Part shown: positions 7,502 to 50,099 of the stretch, one piece after another
Layout: each line of letters opens with the position of its first letter
Numbering within the stretch: the first letter of the stretch is position 1
IMG/VR virus record: IMGVR_UViG_3300017741_002088
Location: 1-52,467 of that record
Direction: 5' to 3' (one strand)
Source: a virus
Length of the DNA: 52,467 bases
Made by a program: the position numbers and the translations under genes
The notes under the pieces: generated by a model
What the model saw: the letters and a program-made list of their open reading frames with translations, nothing else
What the model was told of the DNA's origin: nothing
Database searches by the model: none

Positions 7502-8674
7502 TTCATTTTTCAATTCTGGAACATGATCTAAAATATCAAACCCTCTAATTTTATTCATCTTATTAGTATAGTTCCAAACATCATATAACCAACTTTTGTA
7601 ACCTTTTTCTTCGTAATAACTTATCGGATCAAAAAAGTTTCTGAATGTGGCACGATCACCATAATAATGTTCTAATGGCATAAGTTTCCATAACTGTTCT
7701 TCAACGACTTCTTCAGGCAAATATAAAGGAGAACACCAAGATGGGTGGTGAACAATATTGTGACATTGCATCCATCTTGTGTATGGTTTGTCATGAAAAT
7801 ATTCAAAGATGCGATCTAAAGACCAAAAATTGTACAACGATATTGTAATCATGATTTGAGATTTTATACCAGTTTCTCCATATAAAATCTCCATATTCTT
7901 TGTTATTTTATCCCAATCACCACCTCTGATCCAATTGTAAATGTTTTCTGTACCATCTACCGAAACCATTGCTCTAAGGTTTTTTAACTTTTTGAAAATG
8001 GGTAAGTGTCTTTTTAGCAATCCTTGCATATTAGTTTGTAAATTGATGGTGCAGTCTGGGTTTGTTTCAGAAGCGACTTTCAAAAATTCAATGTGTTTTT
8101 GATCTGCAAGGGGATCTCCACCTTTCATATAAAAAATGTCTAGGTTAGGAATCAGTTTATTAATTTTCTCAGCGTCTTCTTCTGAGAATCTCCACAACTT
8201 ATGATTTACATGACCAAACTCTTTGTCATATTCTAACCACTGATTAGAATGCCTTCCGCTACACATCACACACATTTGATTACATATGTTTGATGCAGCA
8301 ATTTCCAAGAAACGGATTTTATTTTCACCACCACGTTCCCATTTCCAATCATATGTTCCTTTTTTTAAATTTGATCTATACGATTCAAATACAGTATTGT
8401 TACTTCTTTTTGCTGAACCAAAGCATGTGCTGCATGGATAAAAGTTTCCTTGTTCACCTTTATCATATGCATCCCAAACATCCTGATACTCTTCCACCCA
8501 CCACTTTTGAAGATCATCGATGTCAGATATATTCATTGCGGGTTTGAGTCTATTGCCGTTTCGACCAAAATTTCTCATTCTTGAATTGTCTTGGCAACAA
8601 AAGGTTATATTACCTGTGTTGGGTTCTATAGTAATTCCATGAAACGGAATGTAACAATTTTTATCTAAGTCCAA
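7487..8674 (-). CDS. Radical SAM protein (twitch/SPASM-like)
   Basis: A 395-residue protein. The radical SAM cluster motif CxxxCxxC is C131, C135, C138 (CNQMCVMC), followed by a GGDPL motif near residue 186 in the place of the usual GGEPL, which contacts SAM. Further cysteines at C7, C26, C27, C81 and C84 could ligand an auxiliary cluster; the CxxC pair at 81/84 is suggestive. It starts at TTG with an AAGGAA SD and overlaps the end of the upstream glycosyltransferase by 14 bases, as last gene of a reverse operon. The substrate is unknown. Its company (three glycosyltransferase-like proteins and a methyltransferase) suggests modification of a surface glycan, a tail protein or DNA. Confidence 0.8.
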   Translation of the reverse strand: MDLDKNCYIPFHGITIEPNTGNITFCCQDNSRMRNFGRNGNRLKPAMNISDIDDLQKWWVEEYQDVWDAYDKGEQGNFYPCSTCFGSAKRSNNTVFESYRSNLKKGTYDWKWERGGENKIRFLEIAASNICNQMCVMCSGRHSNQWLEYDKEFGHVNHKLWRFSEEDAEKINKLIPNLDIFYMKGGDPLADQKHIEFLKVASETNPDCTINLQTNMQGLLKRHLPIFKKLKNLRAMVSVDGTENIYNWIRGGDWDKITKNMEILYGETGIKSQIMITISLYNFWSLDRIFEYFHDKPYTRWMQCHNIVHHPSWCSPLYLPEEVVEEQLWKLMPLEHYYGDRATFRNFFDPISYYEEKGYKSWLYDVWNYTNKMNKIRGFDILDHVPELKNELRKL

Positions 8675-28093: not shown

Positions 28094-29032
28094 ATGAGTA
28101 ATGAATTTTTGTGGGTTGAAAAGTATCGCCCACGCACTGTTGAAGATTGTATTCTTCCACCTAGTCTAAAAAAGACTTTTAAAAAAATTGTGGAATCCGG
28201 AGAGTTACCTAATATGCTCTTTTCGGGAACCGCAGGTCTTGGTAAAACAACTGTTGCCAAGGCAATATGTAACGAACTTGATCTTGATCATATTGTCATC
28301 AACGGATCGGAAGAGGGCAATATTGACACTCTCCGTGGTAAAATCAAGCAGTTCGCGAGTACTGTCTCATTGCAGGGTGGCGTTAAAGTCGTCATCCTCG
28401 ATGAGGCAGACTACTTAAATCCTCAGTCAACTCAACCTGCTTTGCGCGGTTTCATCGAAGAGTTTTCTAACAACTGTCGGTTTATCCTCACATGTAATTT
28501 TAAGAATCGTATCATTGAACCTCTACACTCTCGGTGTGGCGTATATGATTTCAATGGCGGTGATAAGGCAACACTGTGCGGTGAGTTTATGACTCGATGT
28601 CAGCAAATCCTTCTTGACGAGCAGATCACAGTTGACAGTCAACAGGTTCTTGCTGATCTGATTATGAAACACTTTCCTGACTGGAGGCGTGTACTTAACG
28701 AACTCCAGCGGTATGGTATTGCTAATCAGTCTATTGATGACCAGATCCTAGTAAATGTTTCAGACCAAAACTACGATGAATTATTCGTGTCTTTGAAAAA
28801 TAAAGATTTCAAGAACATGCGGAAGTGGGTCGTTAACAATATAGATACAGATGCGTCTGCAATCTTTCGGTCGATTTATGATCGTATGCAGGAAAAAATT
28901 GCACCACAATCTATACCGCAACTCGTTTTAATCCTCGCTGACTACCAGTACAAGAATGCCTTTGTTGCTGATCACGAATTAAATGTTGTTGCTTGCTTAA
29001 CGGAGGTCATGGCAAATGTCGAATTTTCTTAA
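28094..29032 (+). CDS. 44: gp44 clamp loader large subunit
   Basis: 312 residues, an AAA+ ATPase of the RFC family. It starts with WVEKYRPRTVEDCILPP, has Walker A GTAGLGKT at 45-52, Walker B VVILDEADYL near 100 and an arginine-finger region (LHSRCGVYDF) near 145. Four copies with one gp62 open and load gp45. Close in length to T4 gp44 (319). The end overlaps the glutaredoxin gene by 17 bases. Confidence 0.93.
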   Translation: MSNEFLWVEKYRPRTVEDCILPPSLKKTFKKIVESGELPNMLFSGTAGLGKTTVAKAICNELDLDHIVINGSEEGNIDTLRGKIKQFASTVSLQGGVKVVILDEADYLNPQSTQPALRGFIEEFSNNCRFILTCNFKNRIIEPLHSRCGVYDFNGGDKATLCGEFMTRCQQILLDEQITVDSQQVLADLIMKHFPDWRRVLNELQRYGIANQSIDDQILVNVSDQNYDELFVSLKNKDFKNMRKWVVNNIDTDASAIFRSIYDRMQEKIAPQSIPQLVLILADYQYKNAFVADHELNVVACLTEVMANVEFS

Positions 29033-29294
29033 ACTTTATACCCAAAACGATTGTCCCTTTTGTGTTACTATGAAGAACAAACTTGACGAGTGGGGGTTTG
29101 ATTATATTACTGTGAATGTGAGTTATAATCAGGAAGCGAAAACGTTTTTGAAAAATCAAGGACACCGCACTGTTCCTCAACTATATGACGGCAATGTAAA
29201 CCTGAACAAAGATATCAACACCAGTGACCTGACAAAACGTCATCTTGAAATGATGATGCTCGAACAAGATGGTGGCGTGGAGATGTTTGGTTGA
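29016..29294 (+). CDS. Glutaredoxin
   Basis: A 92-residue thioredoxin-fold protein with CPFC redox site (C13, C16) and the cis-proline TVPQ near residue 53. Glutaredoxins reduce ribonucleotide reductase and other dithiol enzymes. No ribonucleotide reductase lies in this window, though many T4-like phages carry one. It is inserted inside the clamp loader operon, overlapping gp44, as in marine relatives I recall. Confidence 0.85.
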   Translation: MSNFLKLYTQNDCPFCVTMKNKLDEWGFDYITVNVSYNQEAKTFLKNQGHRTVPQLYDGNVNLNKDINTSDLTKRHLEMMMLEQDGGVEMFG

Positions 29295-29458
29295 GACGTG
29301 CTTGGAATATTTGGTGTAAAACAATTGGGAGTAAGATAACAGATGATAATTGTGAAAATGACATTGCAGCAGTCATTCGTACTATATGGGTTGTTACTCA
29401 TATGGTCGCTTGCTTTTTTATTATCATTCATAACGGCATAAAGATTGGTTGGTTCTAA
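29291..29458 (+). CDS. Small one-helix membrane protein, TTG start
   Basis: A 55-residue reading frame starting at TTG in a TTGA overlap with the glutaredoxin stop, with GGAG eight bases upstream, and ending at TAATG with gp62. The joins at both ends support it as a real gene. Residues 1-30 are polar and acidic (SKITDDNCENDIAAVIR). Residues 32-50 (TIWVVTHMVACFFIIIHNG) form one membrane helix. Function unknown. Confidence 0.6.
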   Translation: MRRAWNIWCKTIGSKITDDNCENDIAAVIRTIWVVTHMVACFFIIIHNGIKIGWF

Positions 29459-29835
29459 TGAATCCATTTGAGTATGTTAATGCGATTAATTTTAAGAAAC
29501 AAGATATCATGGTTGATGATCTTGCAGAAAAAGGTTATGCCGCATATATGATCAACAGATCTTTATCTTATTTCCCTGATACAGTTATGATGGCGAATGA
29601 GATGAATATCAACCACCATCTTGATAATCGTTTACAATTTGACTTTCTTATAAATATAGTACGAAAGAAAAAACGGTTCTCTAAATGGGCAAAACCTGAG
29701 AGCATAAGTGACGTGGAAGTTGTCAAGGAATATTATGGTTATAGTAATGAAAAAGCAAAAAATGCCTTGTCCCTTCTCACATCAGATCAGATTGATGAAT
29801 TAAAGAAGAAGGTTTTTAAAGGTGGAACAAAATAA
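29458..29835 (+). CDS. 62: gp62 clamp loader small subunit
   Basis: 125 residues from the ATG at 29458; an in-frame codon nine bases upstream would lie in the preceding small gene. MNPFEYVNAIN, YMINRSLSYFPDTVM, HLDNRLQFDFL and RKKKRFSKWAKPE match gp62 of marine T4-like phages. It pairs with gp44. Placement after gp44 and before regA is the classic order. A TATAAATA inside the gene is probably chance. Confidence 0.88.
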   Translation: MNPFEYVNAINFKKQDIMVDDLAEKGYAAYMINRSLSYFPDTVMMANEMNINHHLDNRLQFDFLINIVRKKKRFSKWAKPESISDVEVVKEYYGYSNEKAKNALSLLTSDQIDELKKKVFKGGTK

Positions 29836-30229
29836 AATTATTGAGTGGAACCCAAGTGCAATGCTTGAGATTACACTAAACGAACCAGATGATTTTCTAA
29901 AAGTTCGTGAGACACTAACACGTATCGGTGTTGCGTCCCGAAAAGACAAGAAGTTATACCAGTCCTGTCATATTCTACATAAGCAGGGAAGATATTTCAT
30001 TGTACATTTTAAAGAGTTATTTCTCTTAGATGGAAAGAAGTCTAATCTTGAAGAGAATGATATCGCACGTCGTAATACTATCGCCACTCTTATGAGTGAT
30101 TGGGGATTGATTAGCATAGAAGGTTCGACTACAGAACCGCTTGCACCAATGCGACAAATCAAAATTATTCCTTACAAAGAAAAGCAGGAATGGGAGTTAT
30201 GTCCCAAGTATAACATTGGTAATAAATGA
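29822..30229 (+). CDS. regA: RegA translational repressor
   Basis: 135 residues if started at GTG 29822; the ATG at 29861 (MLEITLNEPDDFLKV) would give 122 residues, matching the T4 start. The core KDKKLYQSCHILHKQGRYFI near residue 40 and the end CPKYNIGNK match T4 RegA closely. RegA binds the start regions of many early mRNAs and blocks translation. The first gene downstream overlaps its last bases. Confidence 0.92.
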   Translation: MEQNKIIEWNPSAMLEITLNEPDDFLKVRETLTRIGVASRKDKKLYQSCHILHKQGRYFIVHFKELFLLDGKKSNLEENDIARRNTIATLMSDWGLISIEGSTTEPLAPMRQIKIIPYKEKQEWELCPKYNIGNK

Positions 30230-30866
30230 TATCCCATTTATCGAACTTGATATCGATATAGATTATGACAAACTATTAAGTGAATGGAAAGCAGTAGAAG
30301 ATAAATATTCTTTTGCCAAATATAAAACCAAATATTGGCAGGTCAGAAGAAAATATGCTAAAGCATGGTCAGGAATCTCATTAGTAGGATCAGATGGTGA
30401 CTTATACTCTGATATGTACGAAGGTGATTCTTCTGCGGCATCTAAGACTGAACTGAGAGATGTTTGTCCATATTATTATGAACTGATATCAAAACTTGGA
30501 GGAGATGGTTTTAGAGCAAGGATTATGAGGATTTCACCAAAGGAATCCTTGGTATGGCATAGTCATGTACAAGAACACAGGCAACCCGAATGGCAACTAA
30601 CTTGCCAGATTCCGATTGTCATGCCAAATGATTTTGAATATTGTGTTTTACATAAAGATGAATTTAGATGGTGGAAAAGGTTTCATAGACCAGATTGGTT
30701 AAAGAGAGTCTGGCGAAAAAAACTTGATGTTGGTAAGGCATACATTTTTAATTCTTACCACTATCATAACGTGTACAACTACAGTAATGAATACAGGGTT
30801 ACTTTGATGTTGTACTTAGATTTAAGAGATCCAAAAGTTCGCGATTTGATTGAAAGAAGTTTATAA
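30216..30866 (+). CDS. 2OG-Fe(II) oxygenase-like (aspartyl hydroxylase family)
   Basis: About 216 residues from TTG at 30216; the frame is open back to 30141, so the start is uncertain and no good SD is seen. The C-terminal half has WHSHVQEHRQPEW (first metal His), then GKAYIFNSYHYHNVYN (second His) and EYRVTLMLYLD (2OG-binding Arg). This two-histidine layout is that of aspartyl/asparaginyl beta-hydroxylases. The substrate is unknown. The next gene starts at its stop (TAATG), which suggests a shared function with the riboflavin-kinase-like protein only by position. Confidence 0.55.
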   Translation: MVINDIPFIELDIDIDYDKLLSEWKAVEDKYSFAKYKTKYWQVRRKYAKAWSGISLVGSDGDLYSDMYEGDSSAASKTELRDVCPYYYELISKLGGDGFRARIMRISPKESLVWHSHVQEHRQPEWQLTCQIPIVMPNDFEYCVLHKDEFRWWKRFHRPDWLKRVWRKKLDVGKAYIFNSYHYHNVYNYSNEYRVTLMLYLDLRDPKVRDLIERSL

Positions 30867-31162
30867 TGGACTATTTACATGGCAATGTAAGAAAAGGAAT
30901 TCAGTTGTCTAGGCAACTGGGATTCCCCACAATAAATATTGACAACGATAGGTGGGGAAAAGATGAATATGGTGTTTATATTATAAATCATATTCAGTAT
31001 GGTAATGGGATTGCATTCGTTATGCCATCCCTGATTGAGATACATTTTTTCGAAAATGTGTTATTTGATGATGATACGATTGATGTCAAAGTTGTCCGCA
31101 AAGTTAATGCACCATCAACTGGCATCTTGCATCATTTTTATAAAGGTCTATACAATGTATAG
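30866..31162 (+). CDS. Riboflavin-kinase-like protein, minimal
   Basis: A 98-residue protein that aligns by eye with the C-terminal kinase domain of RibF. HGNVRKGIQLSRQLGFPTIN covers the glycine-rich turn and the Mg/ATP-binding PTxN motif (usually PTAN). YGVYII follows, then IEIHFFENVLF with the Glu in the place of the catalytic base (usual LEVH), and IDVKVVRKV for the last strand. The family domain is about 125-150 residues, so the C-terminal helices are mostly missing. If active it would convert riboflavin to FMN; the phage ThyX and possible oxidoreductases use flavin. Activity is uncertain. Confidence 0.6.
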   Translation: MDYLHGNVRKGIQLSRQLGFPTINIDNDRWGKDEYGVYIINHIQYGNGIAFVMPSLIEIHFFENVLFDDDTIDVKVVRKVNAPSTGILHHFYKGLYNV

Positions 31163-31586
31163 GATAACAGGGATATTTAAAAACAAGAAGGTCGTACAAG
31201 TGTTCTACAACATTTACGATGCTATTGAGTTTAAAGATATCGTTGATGCAAATTATCCTATAAAAGTGAAATTTGAAAAAGGAGTATATCCGATGAGAAC
31301 ATTTATTGTTGATATGTGGAATTCAGTAATGAACCACGAAGCAAACCCACTGAGTAAAATCCCAGATATGCAAACACGTCATGTTGTTATGCAATTACTA
31401 GCATGGATGTGGTGTATCATTTTTTCTACAAGTGTTGGTAGCATCACAGTTTTTGCTGCAAGCGCAGTTGCCCATGCTCTGCTCATTGCTGGCATTGTAA
31501 TAACTGTTGCCACCTTTGAAACTGCTAGACGCAAACCGCAATACTTTGGTGGATTAGGTCGTGGTAATGGCGGTGAGCACGAATAA
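31155..31586 (+). CDS. Two-helix membrane protein with possible internal start
   Basis: 143 residues from the ATG at 31155 (AAAGG upstream, overlapping the previous gene). A second ATG in frame at 31293 has a far better SD (AAGGAG, eight bases away) and would give a 97-residue protein with two membrane helices (VVMQLLAWMWCIIFSTSV and VAHALLIAGIVITVATF) and a basic, Gly-rich tail. The upstream 46 residues look coding (YRITGIFKNKKVVQVFYN). Two products from one frame are possible. Holin-like topology is compatible but not shown. Confidence 0.55.
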   Translation: MYRITGIFKNKKVVQVFYNIYDAIEFKDIVDANYPIKVKFEKGVYPMRTFIVDMWNSVMNHEANPLSKIPDMQTRHVVMQLLAWMWCIIFSTSVGSITVFAASAVAHALLIAGIVITVATFETARRKPQYFGGLGRGNGGEHE

Positions 31587-31657: not shown

Positions 31658-31689
31658 TTATTAAACCTTGCATAGTCATGGAGGTACAT

Positions 31690-32166
31690 ATGACTGGATT
31701 AGTTTACCCACGCAGTGGGTTCATCGGTTTCGACCACATCTTCGATCAACTTGAGAATATTCACAAGCATGCGAAGGATACCTATCCCCCACACAACGTA
31801 GTAAAAGACGATGAGTTTAAATTCTGTCTAGAACTAGCAGTGGCAGGATTCAAACAAGATCATATCGATATTGAAGTCAAAGACCACGTGTTAACGATCA
31901 AAGGTGATCGCCCACAACGTCGCGAACAAGATAGATATGTTCACAAAGGTATCAGTGCAAGAAACTGGAAAAAGTCATTTAGACTGTCCGAATACACGGA
32001 AGTCATCGGTGCTGATCTACAGGACGGAATATTGACTGTCGACTTAGAAGTCGTCCTTCCTAAAGAAAAGCGACCTCGTAAAATCACAATTGGTCAGAAC
32101 GAGGAAAACGAAAATGACAACAATAGCACTAAAGGGTTACACAACCCTCGCAACAATACTGGGTGA
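31690..32166 (+). CDS. Hsp20 small heat-shock protein
   Basis: 158 residues from the ATG at 31690 behind TGGAGGT. The alpha-crystallin domain spans about 36-135: FKFCLELAVAGFKQDHIDIEV, LTIKGDR and the terminal signature GADLQDGILTVDL (usual GxLxI/V). Such ATP-independent chaperones are conserved in marine T4-like phages, where they are thought to help scaffold or virion assembly. The C-terminus is Asn/Glu-rich. The 5' UTR could pair with the SD (see findings). Confidence 0.9.
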   Translation: MTGLVYPRSGFIGFDHIFDQLENIHKHAKDTYPPHNVVKDDEFKFCLELAVAGFKQDHIDIEVKDHVLTIKGDRPQRREQDRYVHKGISARNWKKSFRLSEYTEVIGADLQDGILTVDLEVVLPKEKRPRKITIGQNEENENDNNSTKGLHNPRNNTG

Positions 32167-32335: not shown

Positions 32336-32462
32336 ATTGTTTAAAATTCTTATGAAAAGAATGTCACAAGATCCAGTAGAACGTTATCTTGCTGAATCAG
32401 AAGACCTAGCAGACCTTGAAAATCGTATGAAATCATTACGTCATAAAGGAATCTGGGTATGA
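32328..32462 (+). CDS. DUF3563-like small protein, GTG start
   Basis: 44 residues starting at GTG, overlapping the previous stop by eight bases, and ending within the pseudoazurin start. The segment RYLAESEDLADLENRMKSLR matches the conserved core of the DUF3563 family (YLAEAxDLxDLExRM) found in proteobacteria and phages. Function unknown. It may help couple translation into the pseudoazurin gene. Confidence 0.6.
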   Translation: MIKLFKILMKRMSQDPVERYLAESEDLADLENRMKSLRHKGIWV

Positions 32463-32890
32463 TGAAAACATTCTTTGCTACTCTTTTAGGATTAGTTTTA
32501 ATTTCTAATATTGCTTATGGCAAAACAATAGAAGTTGAAATGTTGAACAAAGATAGTTCAGGTCGTAAAATGGTATTCAGTCAAGAGGTAGTTCGTGCCG
32601 ATACTGGTGATACAGTAACATGGGTGCCAACATCAAAGGGTCACAACGTAGAAATCGTTGCTGCACCTGATGGTTTTGCTATCCCAAAGAAAAGTAAAAA
32701 TGGCAAAGAAGTCAGTATTGATTTCACAGTGCCAGGAATTTACTATTACTGGTGTACACCGCATAAAGGCATGGGCATGATTGGTCTTGTTGTAGTTGGT
32801 AACGATACATCTAATAAAGATGATATCGCAAAGGCAAAGGCACTAGGCAAATCAAAGAAGAAACTCAAAGAACTTTTGGGTGACCTCTAA
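32459..32890 (+). CDS. Pseudoazurin-type blue copper protein
   Basis: 143 residues with a signal peptide (MMKTFFATLLGLVLISNIAY, cleavage near residue 21), so periplasmic. The mature part matches pseudoazurins: EVEMLNKDSSG, GDTVTWVPTSKGHNVE and WCTPHKGMGMIGLVVVG. All four type 1 copper ligands are present with pseudoazurin spacing: H62, C99, H102, M107. A C-terminal helix pair (KAKALGKSKKKLKELLGDL) is also a pseudoazurin feature. Pseudoazurins carry electrons to copper nitrite reductase, nitrous-oxide reductase or other periplasmic acceptors. SD AAAGGA. A host-derived auxiliary gene. Confidence 0.85.
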   Translation: MMKTFFATLLGLVLISNIAYGKTIEVEMLNKDSSGRKMVFSQEVVRADTGDTVTWVPTSKGHNVEIVAAPDGFAIPKKSKNGKEVSIDFTVPGIYYYWCTPHKGMGMIGLVVVGNDTSNKDDIAKAKALGKSKKKLKELLGDL

Positions 32891-32949
32891 TGTGGGCATA
32901 TACCTACGAAGAAGCAAAATGGTTGATGAACAACTAACCTAAATAAGCA

Positions 32950-32978
32950 GGAGCATCGCAAAGATGCTCCTTCTAATT
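32950..32978 (+). terminator. Hairpin terminator after pseudoazurin
   Basis: GGAGCATC and GATGCTCC form a perfect eight-pair stem around a GCAAA loop, followed by TTCTAATT. The stem is strong; the T-tract is short, so termination may be partial. Confidence 0.6.
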
Positions 32979-33149: not shown

Positions 33150-33611
33150 ATGAATATTGAAAAGTTGCGCGTAGACTTAGAAAATGACGAAGGAGTTAAA
33201 TATGAAATTTATCTTGATCATCTTGACTTGCCTACTTTTGGCATCGGTCATCTGGTTAGGGATGAAGATCCAGAACAAGGATTACCAGTTGGCACGGCAG
33301 TCAGCGCAGATCGAGTCGCTGAAGTATTCGAATCAGATATTGAAATCACGATTGGAGACTGCGAAAGACTCTATCCGGACTTTTACGAACTACCAGACGA
33401 AGTCCAACTTATCGTCGCAAACATGTGTTTCAATCTCGGGTTTCCACGTTTGTCTGCCTTCAAAGGTATGAAACGTGGCATCGACGCTCAGGATTGGGAT
33501 GCTGCAGCAGATGAGATGGTAGATTCTAAATGGTATTACCAAGTGCCTAATCGTGCAGAGCGATTAGTTCAACGAATGCGAGCAGTTACATTATCTGAAA
33601 TTGCATACTAA
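33150..33611 (+). CDS. T4-type lysozyme (GH24 endolysin)
   Basis: 153 residues with the catalytic triad E14, D23, T29 in the same spacing as T4 lysozyme E11, D20, T26 (DEGVKYEIYLDH then PTFGIGH). The C-terminal SKWYYQVPNRAERLVQRMR matches T4 SRWYNQTPNRAKRVI. It hydrolyses the glycan backbone of peptidoglycan at lysis. There is no signal peptide, so a holin is needed. SD AGGAGAA before the ATG. A second gene lies inside it in another frame. Confidence 0.9.
   Translation: MNIEKLRVDLENDEGVKYEIYLDHLDLPTFGIGHLVRDEDPEQGLPVGTAVSADRVAEVFESDIEITIGDCERLYPDFYELPDEVQLIVANMCFNLGFPRLSAFKGMKRGIDAQDWDAAADEMVDSKWYYQVPNRAERLVQRMRAVTLSEIAY
33202..33471 (+). CDS. Spanin-like membrane protein embedded in the lysozyme gene
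   Basis: 89 residues read in a different frame wholly within the lysozyme gene. The ATG at 33202 has a perfect AAGGAG SD six bases away. Residues 2-20 (KFILIILTCLLLASVIWLG) form one N-terminal membrane helix. Residues 22-62 are a polar heptad-like helix (LARQSAQIESLKYSNQILK, then SRLETAKDSI). The end has a cysteine pair (TCVSISGFHVC). This is the architecture of inner-membrane spanins (Rz), which fuse the membranes at the last step of lysis. No matching outer-membrane lipoprotein partner was recognised. Confidence 0.65.
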   Translation: MKFILIILTCLLLASVIWLGMKIQNKDYQLARQSAQIESLKYSNQILKSRLETAKDSIRTFTNYQTKSNLSSQTCVSISGFHVCLPSKV

Positions 33612-33669: not shown

Positions 33670-36198
33670 ATGAGTGCATTTTACACATCGGTTGTTCGTT
33701 ATGGCAACAATTTTCTCTATCGTGGTTACGATGGGAATGGAAAACGAGTAACGAAGAAAGAAACATTTAAACCGACGCTATTTACTCCTACACAAAAAGA
33801 TGAGGGGTGGCGCGGTTTAGACGGAACTCGGATTGCACCTATTGAATTCGAGACGATGCGTGAAGCAAAAGAATGGTCAGAGCAATATAAAGATGTTGCT
33901 GACTTTCGCATATATGGTTCGTCTAATATGACGCATCAATACATCACCAAGAAATTTAAATATGATATCGAGTTTGATCGTGACCTGATTAACGTCATGA
34001 CAATTGATATTGAGACAGAGTATGAGGGTGGGTTTCCCGATCCCTCTGTCGCTGATCAACAAGTTCTCGCCATCACCGTAAAGTCAAACAAGAGTGATCT
34101 GTTTTGGGTTTGGGGATATGGCGATTATGACACTGAGAAAGCACTTATCAAACCAGTTCGCTATATCAAATGTGAAGACGAGTGGGATCTTCTTTTAAAG
34201 TTTCTTGATTTTTTCCAAGATCCTAGTAAGTGCCCAGATGTTATTACAGGTTGGAACGTTCGCTTCTTTGATATTCCATACCTTGTGAATCGCGTCTCAA
34301 AAGTTCTAGGCATTGAGCAAGCGAAAAAGTTCTCTCCTTGGGGAATGGTTGACTATCATAAGATCAAACGTATGAACCGCGAAGAAGAGGTGTATGAACT
34401 TCGCGGAATACAAACTCTTGATTATCTTGAATTGTTTCAAAAGTTTGGTTATGCCTATGGCAAACAAGAGTCATATAAACTTGATCACATCGCCTATGTC
34501 GTCCTTGGTGAAAAGAAACTATCATACGAAGAATCTGGTTCACTTCGTAATTTGTATAAAGATGACTTCCAAAAATATATTGACTACAACATGAAAGATG
34601 TTGAGTTGGTTGATCGCATTGAAGCAAAGATGGGGTTGATCACTCTCGCTATGACTGTTGCCTATCGTGGTGGTGTGAACTATCAAGACACCTTTGGTGT
34701 TACATCGATATGGGAAAGCATCATCTATCGTAAACTGAATCGCGATAAAGTTGTTCCGCCATTCCATAATAGTGTGAGTCAGAAGAGCGCAAAGTTTGCT
34801 GGTGGGTTTGTTAAAGAACCACAGGTCGGTAGACACGACTGGGTCGTTTCTTTTGACTTGAACTCTTTGTATCCTAATATTATTGTTCAATGGAATATGT
34901 CTCCTGAAACTATCGGTAAGATGCCATATGATAGAGTGACTGGTGGTGTTGACTTCTACTTAAACTTCCACGGAAGTGAGTCTGATCCTATGCATCCCGC
35001 CCAGCGTGAACGTGATGTAACAGTTGCCGCTAATGGTACAACATACCGTAAAGATGTTGACGGTGTCGTGCCAGCAACTATTATAGACTTCTATGATGAT
35101 CGTCGGTCAGCAAAGAATCAGATGCTCGCTGCTGAACAGGCATATGAAAAGAATAAATCTTACGAGTTAGAAAAACAAATCAACACTTTACATAACCAGC
35201 AGATGGCGATTAAAATTCTTATGAACTCTCTCTATGGTGCACTCGGTAATCAATTTTTCAAATATTTTGATCTTGATGTTGCTGAGGGTGTAACGTTGAC
35301 AGGTCAAATGGTTATTCAGTGGGCAGAGCGGTCGATCAATAATGCTATGAATGGTTTGATGAAAACTGAAAAAGATTATGTGATTGCGATTGATACCGAC
35401 TCTTTGTATATTGACTTTGGTCCAATGATTGAGAAACTAAAACCGAATGATCCAGTAAAGTTCCTCGATAAAATTTGCAAAGATCATTTCGAACCTATCC
35501 TTGAAAATGCATACAAAGATCTCTATGGTAAACTAAACTGCCACAAACCACGTATGGAGATGGCACGTGAAGTTATCGCTGATCGTGGTATCTGGACAGC
35601 AAAGAAACGTTATATCCTAAACGTCCACAACAGTGAGGGTGTCCAGTATGATGAACCGAAACTCAAGATCATGGGCATTGAGGCAATCAAGTCATCAACA
35701 CCAGAGGTGGTACGAGCAAAGTTTAAGGAAGCATTCAAGATTATCATAGGTGGGTCTGAGTCAGACACTCAAGAGTTTATCCAGCAGTTTAAAAGAGAAT
35801 TCAAATCACTTCCTCCAGAATCTGTCGCCTTTCCACGATCTGTGTCAAACATCACTGACTGGCATGATCGTAAACTTATTTACAAGAAGGGAACACCCAT
35901 TCACGTTCGTGGATCTCTTTTGTATAATAAGTATCTAAAAGAATACAAACAAACTCAAAAATACGAACTGATCGAGAATGGCACTCGCATCAAGTTTTGT
36001 TATTTAAAAATGCCAAACACAATCAAAGAAAACATCGTTGCCTTTCCTGACGTTCTCCCTGAGGAGTTTGGATTGCATCGTTTCATTGATTATGATCTAC
36101 AGTTCAATAAAACATTTGTTGAACCACTTAAACTTATTCTTGACGCCATTGACTGGACTGTCGAGGAGCAAACTTCTTTGGAGGATTTCTTTGCCTAA
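33670..36198 (+). CDS. 43: gp43 family B DNA polymerase
   Basis: 842 residues. The 3'-5' exonuclease domain has ExoI TIDIETEYEGG near 114 and ITGWNVRFFDIPYL near 195. The polymerase domain has motif A SFDLNSLYPNIIVQW near 394, motif B KILMNSLYGALGNQFF near 513 and motif C AIDTDSLYIDFG near 574. Slightly shorter than T4 gp43 (898). It replicates the phage genome with clamp gp45. Own promoter and strong SD (GGAGGTG). The last bases overlap the MazG-like gene. Confidence 0.95.
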   Translation: MSAFYTSVVRYGNNFLYRGYDGNGKRVTKKETFKPTLFTPTQKDEGWRGLDGTRIAPIEFETMREAKEWSEQYKDVADFRIYGSSNMTHQYITKKFKYDIEFDRDLINVMTIDIETEYEGGFPDPSVADQQVLAITVKSNKSDLFWVWGYGDYDTEKALIKPVRYIKCEDEWDLLLKFLDFFQDPSKCPDVITGWNVRFFDIPYLVNRVSKVLGIEQAKKFSPWGMVDYHKIKRMNREEEVYELRGIQTLDYLELFQKFGYAYGKQESYKLDHIAYVVLGEKKLSYEESGSLRNLYKDDFQKYIDYNMKDVELVDRIEAKMGLITLAMTVAYRGGVNYQDTFGVTSIWESIIYRKLNRDKVVPPFHNSVSQKSAKFAGGFVKEPQVGRHDWVVSFDLNSLYPNIIVQWNMSPETIGKMPYDRVTGGVDFYLNFHGSESDPMHPAQRERDVTVAANGTTYRKDVDGVVPATIIDFYDDRRSAKNQMLAAEQAYEKNKSYELEKQINTLHNQQMAIKILMNSLYGALGNQFFKYFDLDVAEGVTLTGQMVIQWAERSINNAMNGLMKTEKDYVIAIDTDSLYIDFGPMIEKLKPNDPVKFLDKICKDHFEPILENAYKDLYGKLNCHKPRMEMAREVIADRGIWTAKKRYILNVHNSEGVQYDEPKLKIMGIEAIKSSTPEVVRAKFKEAFKIIIGGSESDTQEFIQQFKREFKSLPPESVAFPRSVSNITDWHDRKLIYKKGTPIHVRGSLLYNKYLKEYKQTQKYELIENGTRIKFCYLKMPNTIKENIVAFPDVLPEEFGLHRFIDYDLQFNKTFVEPLKLILDAIDWTVEEQTSLEDFFA

Positions 36199-38955: not shown

Positions 38956-40311
38956 ATGAGTAATTTCGAAGTAACAACAGTCGATGGCGTGAGAACTATA
39001 ACCGCCAAAAAGAAATTTGATTGTGAGCATCTACTCAATGAGTTTATGACTGACGATCATTATGACATCGTGATTGATGGCGATACAGATTTTTATGCTC
39101 CACCTATTGCAACAATTGATGGTGCATTCAATAATGAATCTAATCTAGGATTTCGTTTTCGTAAAAACGTTTTCACCAAAGAAGAAATGGAAGGTGCGTA
39201 TGAAGGTTTGTTAGATGCAGCGACATCAACAAACAACCGTGGCACTTCAACTGGTCAAATTGGTGTACAACGTCAAGGAAACCGCGATTGGGTTTATCCG
39301 TGGCAGTTTGATATTATGAAAATGATCCAGCATGGACGTCTTGATGATAAAACTCCACAGGATGTGATGGATGAATATGTTGCTAAGTGGGGTGATCTAG
39401 AGTTTCATTGGGATAAACGTGGTGCTCTTTGGCATCGTGGTAAAATCACCCAAGCAGGATATGACTATGATAATTTCTTTATGAATCAATTCGAATCAGG
39501 ATTGACTTCAGAAAAGATCGCTGAACTTAAAACGTTCATCCCAGATACTATGTACACCGCAAGTATCTACTCAGGAATCGCAGGTTTCTATGATCGTTAT
39601 CCTCGGATCCCATATGGTCGTGCAACTAACTTTACCGAATCAAATATGGATAAGTTTGCGAAAGCATACCCATATATGCGTAGACTGAATGCTTTGTTTG
39701 CTGAACTTGTTCCTCAACGATATGCTAAACAAAAGAAAGTCGCTGAGTCAATTGACAAACGATTCGTTGTTGCTGAGGATACTGCATTCTCAACTATTAC
39801 AGTCAACAAGAACTATCGTACGACTGCGCATCGAGATGGAGCAAACTATACTCCTGGATTCTCTAACCTGTCAACAGTGACTAAAGGTGACATCGGTTGG
39901 GAAGGTGGACTGTTTGTTCTTCCGGAATATCGTGTTGCTATCAACTTGCGTCCTGGTGATGCTCTATTGGTTGATAACGCTGGAATCATTCATGGTAATA
40001 CTGAAATGATCCCACCATCAGGTTTGGACATTGAAGATATGGAACGCATCTCTATGGTGTCATATATGCGTGACGGTATGCAGTCTCTTCGCTCAAAAGA
40101 ATATGAAGATGCTCGTCGCGAATATGTTACCGATCGTTCACGCAACAAAGATCACCCACTATGGCGTGAACGTTGGAATGGTGTGTCCGAAGGTATGTGG
40201 GCAGAAGATGAATGGTTAGAATTTCTTAATTCTAAAAACTTAACAGACGAAGATGGTGTAGTCGGGACTGCAAAAACTGATTCTCCCAACTCATTAGAGG
40301 AATTCTTCTAA
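38956..40311 (+). CDS. TET/JBP-like 2OG-Fe(II) dioxygenase
   Basis: 451 residues. The double-stranded beta-helix core is at about 278-372. It has VNKNYRTTAHRDGANYTPGF with the HxD metal pair H292/D294, then GGLFVLPEYRVAINLRPGD, a second metal His in IIHGNTEM (H346) and R364 in RISMVSYMR for 2-oxoglutarate. This spacing and the NKNYRT..HRD..GFSN block are those of TET/JBP enzymes, which hydroxylate 5-methylcytosine or thymine in DNA. The N-terminal 270 residues and acidic C-terminus are phage-specific. First gene of an operon of overlapping genes with base-modification-like neighbours. The target base is not known. Confidence 0.75.
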   Translation: MSNFEVTTVDGVRTITAKKKFDCEHLLNEFMTDDHYDIVIDGDTDFYAPPIATIDGAFNNESNLGFRFRKNVFTKEEMEGAYEGLLDAATSTNNRGTSTGQIGVQRQGNRDWVYPWQFDIMKMIQHGRLDDKTPQDVMDEYVAKWGDLEFHWDKRGALWHRGKITQAGYDYDNFFMNQFESGLTSEKIAELKTFIPDTMYTASIYSGIAGFYDRYPRIPYGRATNFTESNMDKFAKAYPYMRRLNALFAELVPQRYAKQKKVAESIDKRFVVAEDTAFSTITVNKNYRTTAHRDGANYTPGFSNLSTVTKGDIGWEGGLFVLPEYRVAINLRPGDALLVDNAGIIHGNTEMIPPSGLDIEDMERISMVSYMRDGMQSLRSKEYEDARREYVTDRSRNKDHPLWRERWNGVSEGMWAEDEWLEFLNSKNLTDEDGVVGTAKTDSPNSLEEFF

Positions 40312-40907
40312 TGTGCGCAGTCCTTGGGGTCTCGGGAAAGATCGACAGTCAAGTGATCCGTCGACTTTTTCTCGAGTCCCAGATTCGTGGTAGGCATGCC
40401 ACAGGAGTATCGTACTACAAGGAAGGCAAAGTTCATACGATAAAAGAACCTTTGCCTGCCGAGAAGTTTTTAGAGAAACACGACCCAAAAGATTGGTACG
40501 AGGGAGATGAAATTGTTATGATTGGACACTGTAGATATTCTACATCTGATCTTGAATTCAATCAACCCATCGCTAATGATCAATCAAGCATTGTACATAA
40601 CGGTGTGATCTCACAAGAGATGCCTGACCGTTGGAAACAACTGTACAATATTGATTGTGAAACTCGTAACGATACGGAACTTCTTTTCCATAGTAGTCCA
40701 GAAGATTGGCCAGATGCATCTATTGCTGCAGTTTTTCTTACAGGAAAAGAAATGACGTGGACTCGTAATGGAAAACGACCTTTATGGTTTACTTCTCTTG
40801 AAGAATGTGATATAATAACTTCTACAAATGACATTGCAGTTCGTGCTGGTTTATCGAACTCAGTCAAGACATATTATGACGGAAACGATCTACAAAATGA
40901 TTATTGA
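40311..40907 (+). CDS. Class II glutamine amidotransferase domain protein
   Basis: 198 residues beginning MCAVLG; Cys2 becomes the N-terminal nucleophile after Met removal, as in GATase type 2 enzymes. GRHATGVSYY, MIGHCRYST near residue 68 and IVHNGVIS near 98 are the usual Arg/Gly/Asn substrate-binding and oxyanion motifs. There is no synthetase domain, so ammonia would be passed to a partner. It begins at a TAATG join with the dioxygenase and is followed by a GNAT, suggesting that a nitrogen is added to a modified base. That is inference. Confidence 0.75.
   Translation: MCAVLGVSGKIDSQVIRRLFLESQIRGRHATGVSYYKEGKVHTIKEPLPAEKFLEKHDPKDWYEGDEIVMIGHCRYSTSDLEFNQPIANDQSSIVHNGVISQEMPDRWKQLYNIDCETRNDTELLFHSSPEDWPDASIAAVFLTGKEMTWTRNGKRPLWFTSLEECDIITSTNDIAVRAGLSNSVKTYYDGNDLQNDY
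40788..40817 (+). promoter_or_regulatory. Internal promoter before GNAT gene
   Basis: TTTACT at 40788-40793, 18-bp spacer, TATAAT at 40812-40817 preceded by TGTGA. It lies inside the amidotransferase gene, 80 bases before the GNAT ATG. Confidence 0.5.
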
Positions 40908-41553
40908 GAAAATTGATCAACAAGAACTTGAGGATACTCTTGCTCGTAAATTAGAAGAGAATGATGGCGCCAAACTAAACAACATGAATGGTTTGTATCA
41001 TTTGAAACAAACATGTTATGAGTGGGGCATGGAAAACAACTGGCAATCTCCCAGAGCGCAGCAGTGGGTAGCACGCAATGATGAAGGTACTATCATGGGC
41101 GGCACATTTATCACTGTCACCTCGCGCAAACCAGTTCATGTCACCTTTCGCCACATCTTTCTATTTGAAGAAGCAAGAGGTCATGGTGTCGCAGAGACGC
41201 TGTACAATTGGCGGTATCGCTGGGTCATTGAAAACACCCAGTGTAGACGTGTCAGATTGTTTGCGAATAAACCTGCGACACCATGGCATAATAAATGCGG
41301 AATGCGTTTCTTAGGGATGAATAAAGCAAAACAACCTTTTACATATCTGCCTTTATTCGATTGCCCATCTATGCGTGACTATGGAGCAAAACTAGATTCA
41401 ATTGGTCCACGAGCAGCAATGGATATGGTAGAACCTGAAGTCACTAAGCAAGTCGAAAAGATTGTGAGTAAAGGTGGTCGTTGGTACACTCAAGAAGAAT
41501 TCAAGAGTGAATGGGGATCTGAACTAGAAGAAAGGTTTGAACCCTTTGCTTGA
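40897..41553 (+). CDS. GNAT acetyltransferase-like protein
   Basis: 218 residues from the ATG at 40897, overlapping the amidotransferase end by 11 bases. The GNAT core has the acetyl-CoA loop EEARGHGVAETLYNWRY near residue 97 (R/QxxGxG/A form), followed by VRLFANKPATPWHNKCGMRF, typical of strand 5 and the final helix. The N-terminus (about 60 residues) and C-terminal tail are charged. It would transfer an acyl group, possibly to an amine on a modified base given the neighbours. Confidence 0.65.
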   Translation: MIIEKIDQQELEDTLARKLEENDGAKLNNMNGLYHLKQTCYEWGMENNWQSPRAQQWVARNDEGTIMGGTFITVTSRKPVHVTFRHIFLFEEARGHGVAETLYNWRYRWVIENTQCRRVRLFANKPATPWHNKCGMRFLGMNKAKQPFTYLPLFDCPSMRDYGAKLDSIGPRAAMDMVEPEVTKQVEKIVSKGGRWYTQEEFKSEWGSELEERFEPFA

Positions 41554-42538
41554 TCGTCGCGAATTGTTTGTTCGATGGTATGGTTGGTCTCTTGAATACA
41601 AAGATGTTGATCCTGCAGTTTGGTTGACCAATTACCTGCATAAACGATACGAACATAATGAAGAACAACGATACTGGTTGGCGTGGTTATATGGAAACAC
41701 ATATTACCTGCCAACAAGTTGGGTCTTGATGAATGAGTTTCCTGACTTTGAACTTGCGACTTATGATAGAATAAAAGACTGGAACGACCACAACTATACG
41801 CGACTTCGATATCAAACTGACACCAAATGGTCAAAAGGTCATTTGCCTGAGATGTTTAAATCCTATAAAGAGATGATCGGTAACAAGACCCAAAAGGAAT
41901 TCTTTGATGGGTTTGATGGTTTCGATGATCTCTTTGATCATGTAAAAACTAAACAATTCAAATTCGGTAGATACTCAACTTGGTTTTATTTGCAACATCT
42001 AGAGGGAACCTGCGGCATGCGCCACATCAACCCGAAGACTTTGTTGTTAAATGATCGTAGTGGAAGTCGAAGTCATCGAAATGGATTGTGTATGGCATTG
42101 AAAAAAGATGACTGGTATGATAAAAAATTAGACAAAAGTCAGATAGATATATTAGAAGGAATGGGTGCTGATATCTTAACCGAGATGTCAGATCGTTTTC
42201 CGAAGCATAAGAATGAAGTGAATGCATTTACTATGGAAACTGCACTTTGTTCTTTTAAGAAGATCTTTCGTAAACATCACGGAAGATATCTCGGATACTA
42301 TCTTGATCGCCAAGCAGAGGAGATCACTAAAGTGTCTAAAGATGGTTGGAACGGTATTGAGTGGAATGTACTTTGGCAAGCAAGGTCAGAATCACTCGAT
42401 AAAAGATTAACATCTAAGGGTGGCATTATCAAAGACAAATTTGATACATTTGTCGATACTGGATCACTAGATAGGATAGAATGGATGTTCACAGATATCC
42501 AGAAAAGTCCTTCACCTTTAGACAATTTTATGATATAA
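41537..42538 (+). CDS. Thymine pyrophosphorylase-like protein (aGPT-PPlase2 type)
   Basis: About 333 residues from TTG at 41537; a TTG nine bases later is better spaced from AAAGG. The pattern EEQRYWLAWLYGNTYYLPTS near residue 42, LRYQTDTKWSKGHLPEMF near 91, SGSRSHRNGLCMALKKDDW near 176 and METALCSFKKIFR near 231 fits the family named alpha-glutamyl/putrescinyl thymine pyrophosphorylase clade 2. This family is linked to replacing the 5-hydroxymethyl of phosphorylated hmU in phage DNA. I recognise it from memory, without a search. It is flanked by GNAT and a P-loop kinase, the partners expected for that pathway. Confidence 0.55.
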   Translation: MNPLLDRRELFVRWYGWSLEYKDVDPAVWLTNYLHKRYEHNEEQRYWLAWLYGNTYYLPTSWVLMNEFPDFELATYDRIKDWNDHNYTRLRYQTDTKWSKGHLPEMFKSYKEMIGNKTQKEFFDGFDGFDDLFDHVKTKQFKFGRYSTWFYLQHLEGTCGMRHINPKTLLLNDRSGSRSHRNGLCMALKKDDWYDKKLDKSQIDILEGMGADILTEMSDRFPKHKNEVNAFTMETALCSFKKIFRKHHGRYLGYYLDRQAEEITKVSKDGWNGIEWNVLWQARSESLDKRLTSKGGIIKDKFDTFVDTGSLDRIEWMFTDIQKSPSPLDNFMI

Positions 42539-42539
42539 T
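42511..42539 (+). promoter_or_regulatory. Promoter for the P-loop kinase gene
   Basis: TTCACC at 42511-42516, 17-bp spacer, TATAAT at 42534-42539 with TGA before it, overlapping the end of the preceding gene. The predicted RNA start, 42546, is the A of the kinase ATG. Confidence 0.55.
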
Positions 42540-42545
42540 GATACT

Positions 42546-43094
42546 ATGAATAAATTACTCGCAATAATTGGTGCTCCAGGAACTGGTAAGACAACCCTCG
42601 TTCGTGAGTGGATGAAGTCACGAAAATGGTCAAAGGATAAACCAGTTGATCTTCTCGACACTCATGTATCGGACGATATTCGGTTGCTTGGTAAATATGA
42701 GCATGATTCTCTCTTCAGCGGTACAGATAAACTGTCTATGGCAGTACAACCGAAAGCAGTAGAATATCTAGACAACCCATCCCCTGTAACTATATTTGAA
42801 GGCGATCGACTGACTTCGATTAAATTCTTTGAAGCAGCGCAGTCAAAAGGATTTGAAATTAAAATCATTCAACTCACTGTTCCCGATGAAGTTAGAGAAC
42901 AACGTTACAAAGAACGTGGTTCAGAACAAAACCCAACTTGGTTGAATGGCAGATTGACAAAAGTTAAAAATGTTTCAAATGCCTTTTCCGGAAACCCTCT
43001 GTTCGATGAACCGAGCATAGTAGAGGAGTGTGAGCATAAAACTCCTGAAGATACAAAATCAATCATAACAATCATTGAGGATTTTATAAAATGA
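42546..43094 (+). CDS. P-loop kinase, candidate hmU DNA kinase
   Basis: 182 residues. Walker A is GAPGTGKTT at 9-17. Next come LLGKYEHDSLFSGTDKLSMA near residue 48, then TIFEGDRL near 81, and an LID-like basic stretch EQRYKERGSEQNPTWLNGR near 118. The FSGTDxLSMAVQP block is what I recall from phage 5-hydroxymethyluracil DNA kinases, which phosphorylate the base in the polymer before substitution. A nucleotide kinase role is the alternative. No SD precedes the ATG and the promoter suggests a leaderless mRNA. ATGA overlap with the next gene. Confidence 0.6.
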   Translation: MNKLLAIIGAPGTGKTTLVREWMKSRKWSKDKPVDLLDTHVSDDIRLLGKYEHDSLFSGTDKLSMAVQPKAVEYLDNPSPVTIFEGDRLTSIKFFEAAQSKGFEIKIIQLTVPDEVREQRYKERGSEQNPTWLNGRLTKVKNVSNAFSGNPLFDEPSIVEECEHKTPEDTKSIITIIEDFIK

Positions 43095-49303: not shown

Positions 49304-49437
49304 TGAATAAAATTTTGAGAAGACTTGGATTGAAAGACGACTATGGTTATTGCGATATGTCCATTGTTGGGTTTATTGTTATATGGTCGTTTTTTCTTTA
49401 TGGTGTTTATATTGCGATCGGAGACTTAATTAAATGA
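49303..49437 (+). CDS. Small one-helix membrane protein
   Basis: 44 residues, joined to both neighbours by overlaps (TAATG before, ATGA with thyX after), which supports it as coding. A basic N-terminus (NKILRRLGLKDDYGYC) is followed by one membrane helix (MSIVGFIVIWSFFLYGVYIA). Function unknown. Confidence 0.6.
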   Translation: MNKILRRLGLKDDYGYCDMSIVGFIVIWSFFLYGVYIAIGDLIK

Positions 49438-50099
49438 ATGTTAGATTAATCAGTTATTCACAAACAGCGGAGAACCTACATGTCGGTGAAGATATCCAAG
49501 AACTCATTGCGTATTGTGCCCGTGTCTCGAACCCCTCGAACCAAACTAACCAAGAAACGTCCGAACGTTTATTATCCTATCTCGCAAAACACAAGCACTG
49601 GTCGCCTTTCGAGATGGTGTCTGCTTGCTTAGAGATTGAAACGACTCGTGATATTGCTCGTCAAATCCTTAGGCATCGTTCGTTTTCATTTCAGGAGTTT
49701 AGTCAGAGATATGCTAATCCTGTAGAAGATTTAGATTATGTTATGAGGGAAGCGCGACTACAAGATACGAAAAATCGTCAAAACAGTATTGTTACTGATG
49801 ATGCTGATTTACAACTAGAATGGTATAAGCAACAAGCAGAAGTTCAACTTGCCTCTAAAAAAGCATATCAATGGGCGATTGAAAATGGTATTGCTAAAGA
49901 GCAAGCACGTGCGGTGTTGCCCGAAGGTATGATGGGATCACGACTTTATATGAATGGAACCATCAGGTCTTGGATTCATTTTATTGAATTGCGCAGTGCT
50001 AATGGCACACAAAAAGAATGTCAGGATGTTGCCATTGCTTGCGCAAAAGCGATTACTGAGATATTCCCTCTTGCTCAAAAGTTCTTGGAGACAGAATAA
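49434..50099 (+). CDS. thyX: ThyX flavin-dependent thymidylate synthase
   Basis: 221 residues. The ThyX motif RHRSFSFQEFSQRYA begins at R80 (usual RHRxxSxNExSxRY, here with Gln for Asn). SPFEMVSACLEIETTRDIAR precedes it and ARAVLPEGMMGSRLYMNGTIRSW-type dUMP-binding residues follow near 160-180. It makes dTMP from dUMP using FAD, NADPH and methylene-folate. The flavin need fits the riboflavin-kinase-like gene at 30866. Confidence 0.93.
   Translation: MNVRLISYSQTAENLHVGEDIQELIAYCARVSNPSNQTNQETSERLLSYLAKHKHWSPFEMVSACLEIETTRDIARQILRHRSFSFQEFSQRYANPVEDLDYVMREARLQDTKNRQNSIVTDDADLQLEWYKQQAEVQLASKKAYQWAIENGIAKEQARAVLPEGMMGSRLYMNGTIRSWIHFIELRSANGTQKECQDVAIACAKAITEIFPLAQKFLETE

What the first reader, a model, noticed from the sequence alone, without database searches (positions are those of the whole stretch)
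32459..32890. Phage-encoded pseudoazurin with all copper ligands
The protein has a signal peptide, the four type 1 copper ligands in pseudoazurin spacing and the pseudoazurin C-terminal helices. Cyanophages carry plastocyanin for photosynthetic electron flow; a pseudoazurin would instead serve periplasmic electron transfer, such as nitrite or nitrous-oxide reduction or another respiratory chain in a heterotroph. It suggests the phage supports host energy metabolism during infection.
Basis: partly seen in the sequence, partly recalled or inferred. Interest (0 to 1): 0.75.

Follow-up and report, generated by a model that had tools for sequence, protein, structure and literature searches.

The report
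Phage-encoded pseudoazurin, a periplasmic copper carrier
A virus of (probably marine) bacteria carries an intact-looking gene for pseudoazurin, a small blue copper protein that ferries electrons in the periplasm, and dozens of related virus sequences keep the same gene, which suggests that these viruses prop up their hosts' respiration during infection.

Summary
ORF 32459-32890 (+, 143 aa) encodes a pseudoazurin: TIGR02375 E 5.6e-32 (109.9 bits, cut-off 109.85), a predicted fold whose 27 best PDB chains are all pseudoazurins, and ligands H62, C99, H102, M107. It lies in a T4-like replication cluster and overlaps the preceding gene by four bases.

It is not a one-off. IMG/VR gave 85 relatives; 80 were kept (55-80% identity). 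With the window they make 56 distinct proteins, ligands invariant, median dN/dS 0.13. In 26 of 80 loci the same neighbours flank both sides. In 50,697 phage records the matches were 239 cyanophage records, plastocyanins as far as listed.

Phage genes share a clade with SAR116 and Rhodobacteraceae genes. In SAR116, 6 of 14 pseudoazurin genes lie by sox (thiosulfate oxidation) genes, 10 of 13 genomes with pseudoazurin have soxB, and 0 of 61 have copper nitrite reductase. A nearby phage gene also points to SAR116. I therefore favour electron transfer from Sox, or another periplasmic donor, to oxygen respiration over denitrification. Host and partner are inferred; no sox gene was found on the phage contigs.

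The parts
32459..32890 (+). pseudoazurin gene, 143 aa precursor
32459..32521 (+). predicted signal peptide (residues 1-21, ...NIAYG|KT)
   Evidence: read from sequence; a hydrophobic leader by a broad simple rule in all 55 untruncated phage proteins (window included), a rough A-x-A/G motif in 47 of 55
32642..32644 (+). copper ligand His62
   Evidence: invariant in 56 of 56 phage proteins
32753..32779 (+). copper-ligand loop C99-x2-H102-x4-M107
   Evidence: ligands invariant in 56 of 56 phage proteins
32319..32462 (+). small DUF3563 protein; its stop overlaps the pseudoazurin start by 4 bases (ATGA), so the two are probably translationally coupled
   Evidence: recurring neighbour
31678..32166 (+). 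Hsp20 small heat-shock protein, recurring upstream neighbour
31155..31586 (+). membrane-protein-like gene (my reading of its hydrophobic stretches) of unknown function; relatives in 31 of 61 SAR116-family genomes (host marker)
32949..32971 (.). hairpin (9 pairs, loop 5) downstream of the pseudoazurin; possible end of the transcript
   Evidence: listed there as terminator-like on the minus strand only; such sites were no more frequent than in shuffles (2 found, mean 1.7)
33150..33611 (+). phage lysozyme, recurring downstream neighbour
33670..36198 (+). T4-type DNA polymerase gp43
   Evidence: 51% to Phage C48C1
29016..30229 (+). glutaredoxin, clamp loader gp62 and RegA, T4-like replication cluster upstream

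Best explanation
The gene makes a genuine type 1 copper pseudoazurin that is exported to the host's periplasm, loads copper there and shuttles single electrons. It is a conserved auxiliary metabolic gene of T4-like (and some other) phages of alphaproteobacterial heterotrophs, most likely SAR116-type cells. Most likely partner: it takes electrons from periplasmic sulfur oxidation (SoxAX/SoxCD) and passes them to the terminal oxidase, so that ATP production keeps running while host gene expression fails. Shown: family, ligands, fold (predicted), phage context, purifying selection, sox linkage of part of the cellular relatives. Inferred: export, copper loading, host, electron donor and acceptor, benefit to the phage.
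For: Family and fold. Phage context and synteny: both flanks conserved in 26 of 80 loci (gene order). Four ligands invariant in 56 of 56; median dN/dS 0.13, maximum 0.38 over the 724 of 1540 pairs with dS between 0.1 and 2. Tree: phage and alphaproteobacterial genes form one clade, support 100/99, apart from the 20 sampled canonical pseudoazurins and from cyanophage plastocyanin. SAR116 genes between soxD and soxB; sox genes beside 6 of 14 SAR116 pseudoazurins; soxB in 10 of 13 genomes with pseudoazurin against 11 of 48 without, Fisher p 0.0006. In Hyphomicrobium denitrificans, pseudoazurin/cupredoxin transcripts rise when the sulfur-responsive repressors sHdrR or SoxR are deleted (PMC12423496, passage). 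Host marker gene 31155-31586: 31 of 61 SAR116-family genomes, 5 of 120 of the Rhodobacteraceae-type family, 4 of 398 of a phylum sample, one of them SAR116 itself.
Against: SoxY in 0 of 43 phage records and no homologue of the L087 sox proteins in the 80 phage loci, although these are fragments. Phage genes are not nested in the main SAR116 group (18 host rows, 92/96), and the tree has few columns, 40 open forks and an unsettled bootstrap. The most similar named cellular genes include Rhodobacteraceae ones (L083 66%, L084 67%), so the host could be of that kind. Some carriers resemble the Methylophilales phage Melnitz (RNR 79%), whose host is not SAR116. gp43 was found in 0 of 61 SAR116-family genomes, so no infected cell was seen. 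Three of 13 SAR116 genomes have pseudoazurin without a detected soxB, and in a fourth (G012) the soxB match is partial and under the cut-off. Genomes of one family are not independent points.
Confidence: 0.55

Rival explanations
1. Same protein, different partner: it carries electrons from the bc1 complex or from another periplasmic dehydrogenase (for example methanol or amine oxidation in a methylotroph) to a cytochrome oxidase, without Sox.
For: Some carriers resemble Melnitz, a phage of a Methylophilales host; 8 of 14 SAR116 pseudoazurins have no sox gene in the short flank held. [quoted passage not shown]
Against: The one recurring metabolic context that I found for cellular members is sox; the other flanks were not scanned for oxidases or dehydrogenases, so this is weak.
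Confidence: 0.27
2. Electron donor to copper nitrite reductase or nitrous-oxide reductase.
For: Best-known role of such cupredoxins, as stated in a passage of PMC12423496.
Against: Copper nitrite reductase in 0 of 61 SAR116-family genomes, with 2 of 14 control genomes ringing. NosZ was not searched, and the Rhodobacteraceae-type family was tested for neither.
Confidence: 0.07
3. A copper-binding protein without electron transfer: copper buffering, protection against copper or oxidants, or a role in the particle.
For: Not excluded by any test here; a heat-shock gene is its neighbour.
Against: All four redox-site ligands are invariant in 56 of 56, more than buffering should need; leader peptide and pseudoazurin-type C-terminal helices are kept.
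Confidence: 0.09
4. Host DNA, a chimeric assembly or a decaying gene.
For: Single contig of 52,467 bases.
Against: The same flanking genes on both sides in 26 of 80 IMG/VR loci, some of them near-duplicates; overlap with the preceding gene; dN/dS about 0.07 against L001.
Confidence: 0.02

Closest known systems
Pseudoazurin (TIGR02375; e.g. Paracoccus, Alcaligenes, Sinorhizobium; PDB 1adw, 1paz, 3tu6)
   Same: fold, four ligands in the same loop, leader peptide, two C-terminal helices
   Different: 37-43% identical over the structural alignments; belongs to a separate clade with a shorter loop after the first His and a C-terminal GKSKKK motif; phage-borne
Cyanophage plastocyanin PetE (phrog_515)
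   Same: phage-encoded type 1 copper electron carrier in marine T4-like phages; PHROGs E 4.8e-11
   Different: 38% identity at most in the 60 listed of 239 records; net charge by a rough count +3 here against -12 to -13 in three PetE; PetE lies near ptox in the three records looked at, and no photosynthesis gene was met in the window proteins scanned
SAR116 sox-cluster pseudoazurin (L087-L091)
   Same: same clade, best segments 62-70% identical
   Different: shorter loop before the Cys (no PKK); cellular; next to soxC/soxD/soxB
Phage sulfur genes dsrA, dsrC, soxC, soxD, soxYZ (PMC8190135; start of abstract and passages seen)
   Same: phage genes thought to raise the speed or yield of sulfur oxidation
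   Different: those are enzymes and sulfur carriers; this would be the electron carrier downstream; a text search of that paper found no 'azurin', 'plastocyanin', 'cupredoxin' or 'copper'

Membership tests
Pseudoazurin | score over the curated TIGR02375 cut-off | tested here: met
   109.9 against 109.85 bits, a bare pass; relatives L013, L084 and L087 fall below it, L056 and L094 above
Pseudoazurin | His...Cys-x2-His-x4-Met type 1 copper ligands | tested here: met
   56 of 56 phage proteins
Pseudoazurin | cupredoxin fold with two C-terminal helices | tested here: met
   predicted model
Pseudoazurin | signal peptide for export | tested here: inconclusive
   leader read from sequence and a rough motif count; no predictor run
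Pseudoazurin | blue copper absorbance and reversible redox | not testable with these tools
   needs protein
Pseudoazurin | tree position with cellular pseudoazurins | tested here: met
   one 100/99 clade with cellular genes that hit TIGR02375, outgroup PetE; few columns, bootstrap not settled
Plastocyanin | score over TIGR02656 cut-off | tested here: not met
   40.6 against 87.85 bits
Amicyanin | score over TIGR02657 cut-off | tested here: not met
   38.4 against 110.2 bits
Phage auxiliary metabolic gene | host-like metabolic gene inside a phage genome, kept under selection | tested here: met
Phage auxiliary metabolic gene | expressed and beneficial during infection | not testable with these tools
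   no transcripts held
Phage sulfur-oxidation gene set | other sox genes on the same phage | tested here: not met
   SoxY in 0 of 43 records; no sox homologue in 80 loci; all are fragments

The most novel reading that the evidence does not exclude
T4-like phages of SAR116-type marine bacteria carry the electron-accepting copper protein of the Sox pathway and so relieve the off-take of electrons from thiosulfate or organic-sulfur oxidation during infection: a non-photosynthetic counterpart of cyanophage plastocyanin, gained or exchanged several times between phage lineages.
Probability: 0.4. Interest if true: 0.8.

Novelty: new variant of a known kind. Interest (0 to 1): 0.62.

Why it matters
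Phage-borne blue copper carriers are known from cyanophages, where they serve photosynthesis. A widespread pseudoazurin would show that phages of heterotrophs also rewire the periplasmic electron chain, and it would place a copper demand on infected cells. It gives a direct test: does infection change sulfur-dependent respiration in SAR116-like hosts? In four searches of an open-access library (7, 0, 5 and 0 papers listed) no title or start of abstract treats a phage pseudoazurin; I did not open those papers, subscription papers and supplementary tables were not searched, and large surveys may list such genes as copper-binding proteins or plastocyanin.

Tried and rejected
Rejected: plastocyanin or amicyanin; nitrite reduction in SAR116; assembly artefact. 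Led nowhere: SoxY in 43 phage records, 0 hits (43 of the 80 loci, picked by eye, mostly the longer records); gp43 in 61 SAR116-family genomes to catch an infected cell, 0 hits and no positive control; late-promoter motif TATAAATA (motif recalled), three in the window, none in the pseudoazurin cluster (nearest 29649); sigma-70-like sites no more than in shuffles (12 found, mean 9.8); PHROGs on 20 large proteins of other carrier contigs named only some; searches on Sox and pseudoazurin gave no direct biochemical statement in what I saw (of these papers I read passages of PMC12423496 only). That pseudoazurin can accept electrons from Sox proteins in Paracoccus is recalled, not seen in a call.

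Rows dropped: IMG/VR returned 80 of its 85 relatives. For the tree I used the window, 55 distinct phage proteins, L098 (a phage contig binned in a Muricauda MAG), 28 host rows, 20 of the 52 canonical loci (L105, L107, L138-L187) and 3 PetE; left out were the other 32, among them L144 (lacks ligands), further L134 (broken), L130 and L133 (divergent group), and re-fetched copies of L083-L104. L103 is labelled host there but may be a phage contig. One phage protein, L042, is truncated. In one search four labels were wrong and are corrected: 'gp62' is glutaredoxin, 'regA?' is gp62, 'w29822' is RegA, 'dpdA-like' is a Tet/JBP dioxygenase. L080 was counted among the 30 loci with a T4 replication neighbour by a loose rule although its wider context differs; I quote the stricter 26.

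Full report
Observation. Its 143 residues match Pfam Copper-bind (E 1.5e-16) and, among the cupredoxin families of NCBIfam, pseudoazurin by far best: E 5.6e-32, 109.9 bits against a curated cut-off of 109.85, while halocyanin, plastocyanin and amicyanin stay far below theirs. The 22 best distinct PDB sequences are pseudoazurins (best E 8e-25; one is named only 'Blue copper protein' there, 3ef4, titled pseudoazurin), then plastocyanin at E 2e-10. An AlphaFold2 model from 34 sequences has mean pLDDT 90.5 and pTM 0.81, with the two C-terminal helices, and Foldseek ranks 27 pseudoazurin chains first. The ligands are H62, C99, H102, M107.

Phage context. The record is a virus contig of 52,467 bases. 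The gene lies in a T4-like replication cluster: gp47, gp46, gp45, gp44, glutaredoxin, gp62, RegA, an Asp/Arg hydroxylase, a riboflavin-kinase-like fragment, a membrane-protein-like gene, Hsp20, DUF3563, pseudoazurin, lysozyme, gp43, primase (gp47 is named by its position next to gp46, as in Phage C48C1). gp43 is closest to Phage C48C1 (51%), then to cyanophages and unannotated marine single-cell viruses. The pseudoazurin start overlaps the DUF3563 stop by four bases. A hairpin follows at 32949-32971.

Distribution. tblastn against 50,697 phage records gave 239 records, all cyanophages by organism name and all under 60% identity; in the 60 listed the identity is at most 38%, and the features were named plastocyanin/PetE in all but one, a RefSeq copy (NC_070962) labelled tail tip protein whose GenBank twin says plastocyanin. 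No pseudoazurin was seen there. In IMG/VR, 85 stretches encode relatives; 80 were kept, best segments 55-80% identical. They give 55 distinct proteins besides the window (one, L042, truncated); the four ligands are the same in 56 of 56. dN/dS of the mature part has a median of 0.13 and a maximum of 0.38 over the 724 of 1540 pairs with dS between 0.1 and 2. A hydrophobic leader is seen in all 55 that are not truncated, by a broad rule; a rough A-x-A/G motif in 47 of 55. I did not look up the sampling sites of these contigs; 'marine' rests on the kin phages and on the titles of the cellular relatives.

Positions in the carriers. By a simple rule on neighbours within 4.5 kb, 30 of 80 loci have a T4 replication neighbour (26 on both sides; some contigs are near-duplicates), 19 of 80 have ribonucleotide reductase or glutaredoxin upstream, and 31 of 80 have neither. 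The large RNR gene of L013 is 79% identical to that of the Methylophilales phage Melnitz. L032 has a tail sheath protein; one large protein each of L058 and L045 has only distant kin among named phages. So the gene sits at several positions and in several phage lineages; in the tree the label 'phage' needs 4 changes.

Cellular relatives. The scan of 84,980 species genomes used patterns tied to two conserved motifs, so it reaches mainly this clade. It gave 22 loci: 10 titled SAR116 or Puniceispirillum, 6 Rhodobacteraceae types (Rhodobacteraceae, Ascidiaceihabitans, Planktomarina), 3 unnamed Alphaproteobacteria, 1 Rhodospirillales, 2 in Bacteroidota MAGs, one of which (L098) looks like a phage contig. 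Pseudoazurins of any clade (TIGR02375, E at most 1e-24) are in 13 of 61 SAR116-family, 27 of 120 Rhodobacteraceae-type and 21 of 249 phylum-sample genomes. In a tree of 108 rows and 144 columns, 57 phage and 28 host rows form one clade (100/99), outside the 20 sampled canonical pseudoazurins; most SAR116 genes lie in a group of 18 host rows (92/96) beside the phage groups; Rhodobacteraceae L083-L085 lie inside a mixed group with phages (99/98). The window groups with L001, L003, L006 and L010 (97/88), which share its gene order as far as they reach. Forty forks are open, long branches meet and the bootstrap had not settled, so the direction of transfer is not resolved.

What the cellular relatives do. 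In SAR116 L087 the order is soxZ, soxC, a cytochrome-like soxD, pseudoazurin, soxB (TIGR04490, TIGR04555 and TIGR04486 over their cut-offs; soxD is named by position, its only family match was a weak one to a bc1 cytochrome c). The same holds for L088-L091, and soxZ and soxC also flank the divergent L136. Of 14 pseudoazurin places in 13 of 61 SAR116-family genomes, 6 have sox genes in the flank held. soxB is in 10 of those 13 genomes (one of the ten partial and under the cut-off) and in 11 of the other 48 (Fisher p 0.0006; related genomes, so a rough guide). Copper nitrite reductase is in 0 of 61, while 2 of 14 control genomes rang. In Hyphomicrobium, pseudoazurin/cupredoxin transcripts rise when sulfur-responsive repressors are removed (PMC12423496, passage). 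This turns the likely role from denitrification to sulfur oxidation or aerobic respiration.

Host. The phage gene at 31155-31586, 0.9 kb upstream, has relatives (E at most 1e-6) in 31 of 61 SAR116-family genomes, up to 71% identical, some of them broken copies, against 5 of 120 in the Rhodobacteraceae-type family at 47-53% and 4 of 398 in a phylum sample, one of these being SAR116 itself. In L093, L095 and L096 it sits near the SAR116 pseudoazurin. Among phage records only four Melnitz isolates have it. This favours SAR116 but could mark shared mobile DNA; no infected SAR116 cell was found (0 of 61).

Mechanism. Export to the periplasm, copper loading there, reduction by SoxAX/SoxCD (or bc1) and oxidation by a cytochrome oxidase is the chain I propose. 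The mature protein is mildly positive by a rough count (+3; median +3, range -3 to +9 in 56; 20 host rows median +6.5, range -1 to +10), unlike cyanophage PetE at -12 to -13, which fits docking to different partners. The weak points: no sox gene found on the phages, host not proven, no biochemical data.

Known or new. Phage plastocyanin and phage sox/dsr genes are known (the latter from PMC8190135: start of abstract in the listing, passages, no 'azurin' in its text). A phage pseudoazurin was not found in print, judged from listings, which cover an open-access library only.

Noticed in passing
window 31155-31586: Membrane-protein-like gene without Pfam match, shared with half of the SAR116-family genomes (31 of 61) and with Methylophilales phage Melnitz; multicopy and sometimes broken in SAR116.
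   Followed up: partly
window 38956-43094: Tet/JBP-type 2-oxoglutarate dioxygenase (PF12851), a glutamine amidotransferase domain and a P-loop nucleotide kinase close together, with a thymidylate synthase (phrog_85) at 49434-50099 further on: may be a DNA base-modification pathway.
   Followed up: partly
window 30141-31162: Asp/Arg beta-hydroxylase followed by a short riboflavin-kinase-like fragment.
   Followed up: no
window 7487-8674 (-): Radical SAM protein on the minus strand among unnamed genes.
   Followed up: no
L098: A contig in a Muricauda MAG with phage-like genes and a phage-type pseudoazurin, so probably mis-binned phage DNA.
   Followed up: partly
L083, L084, L085: Rhodobacteraceae pseudoazurins fall inside a mixed group with phages in the tree and have the phage-type loop: transfer between phage and host, direction open.
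   Followed up: partly
L136 (unnamed SAR116-family genome G094): A more divergent pseudoazurin also beside soxZ and soxC, so the sox link may be older than the L087-L091 group.
   Followed up: no
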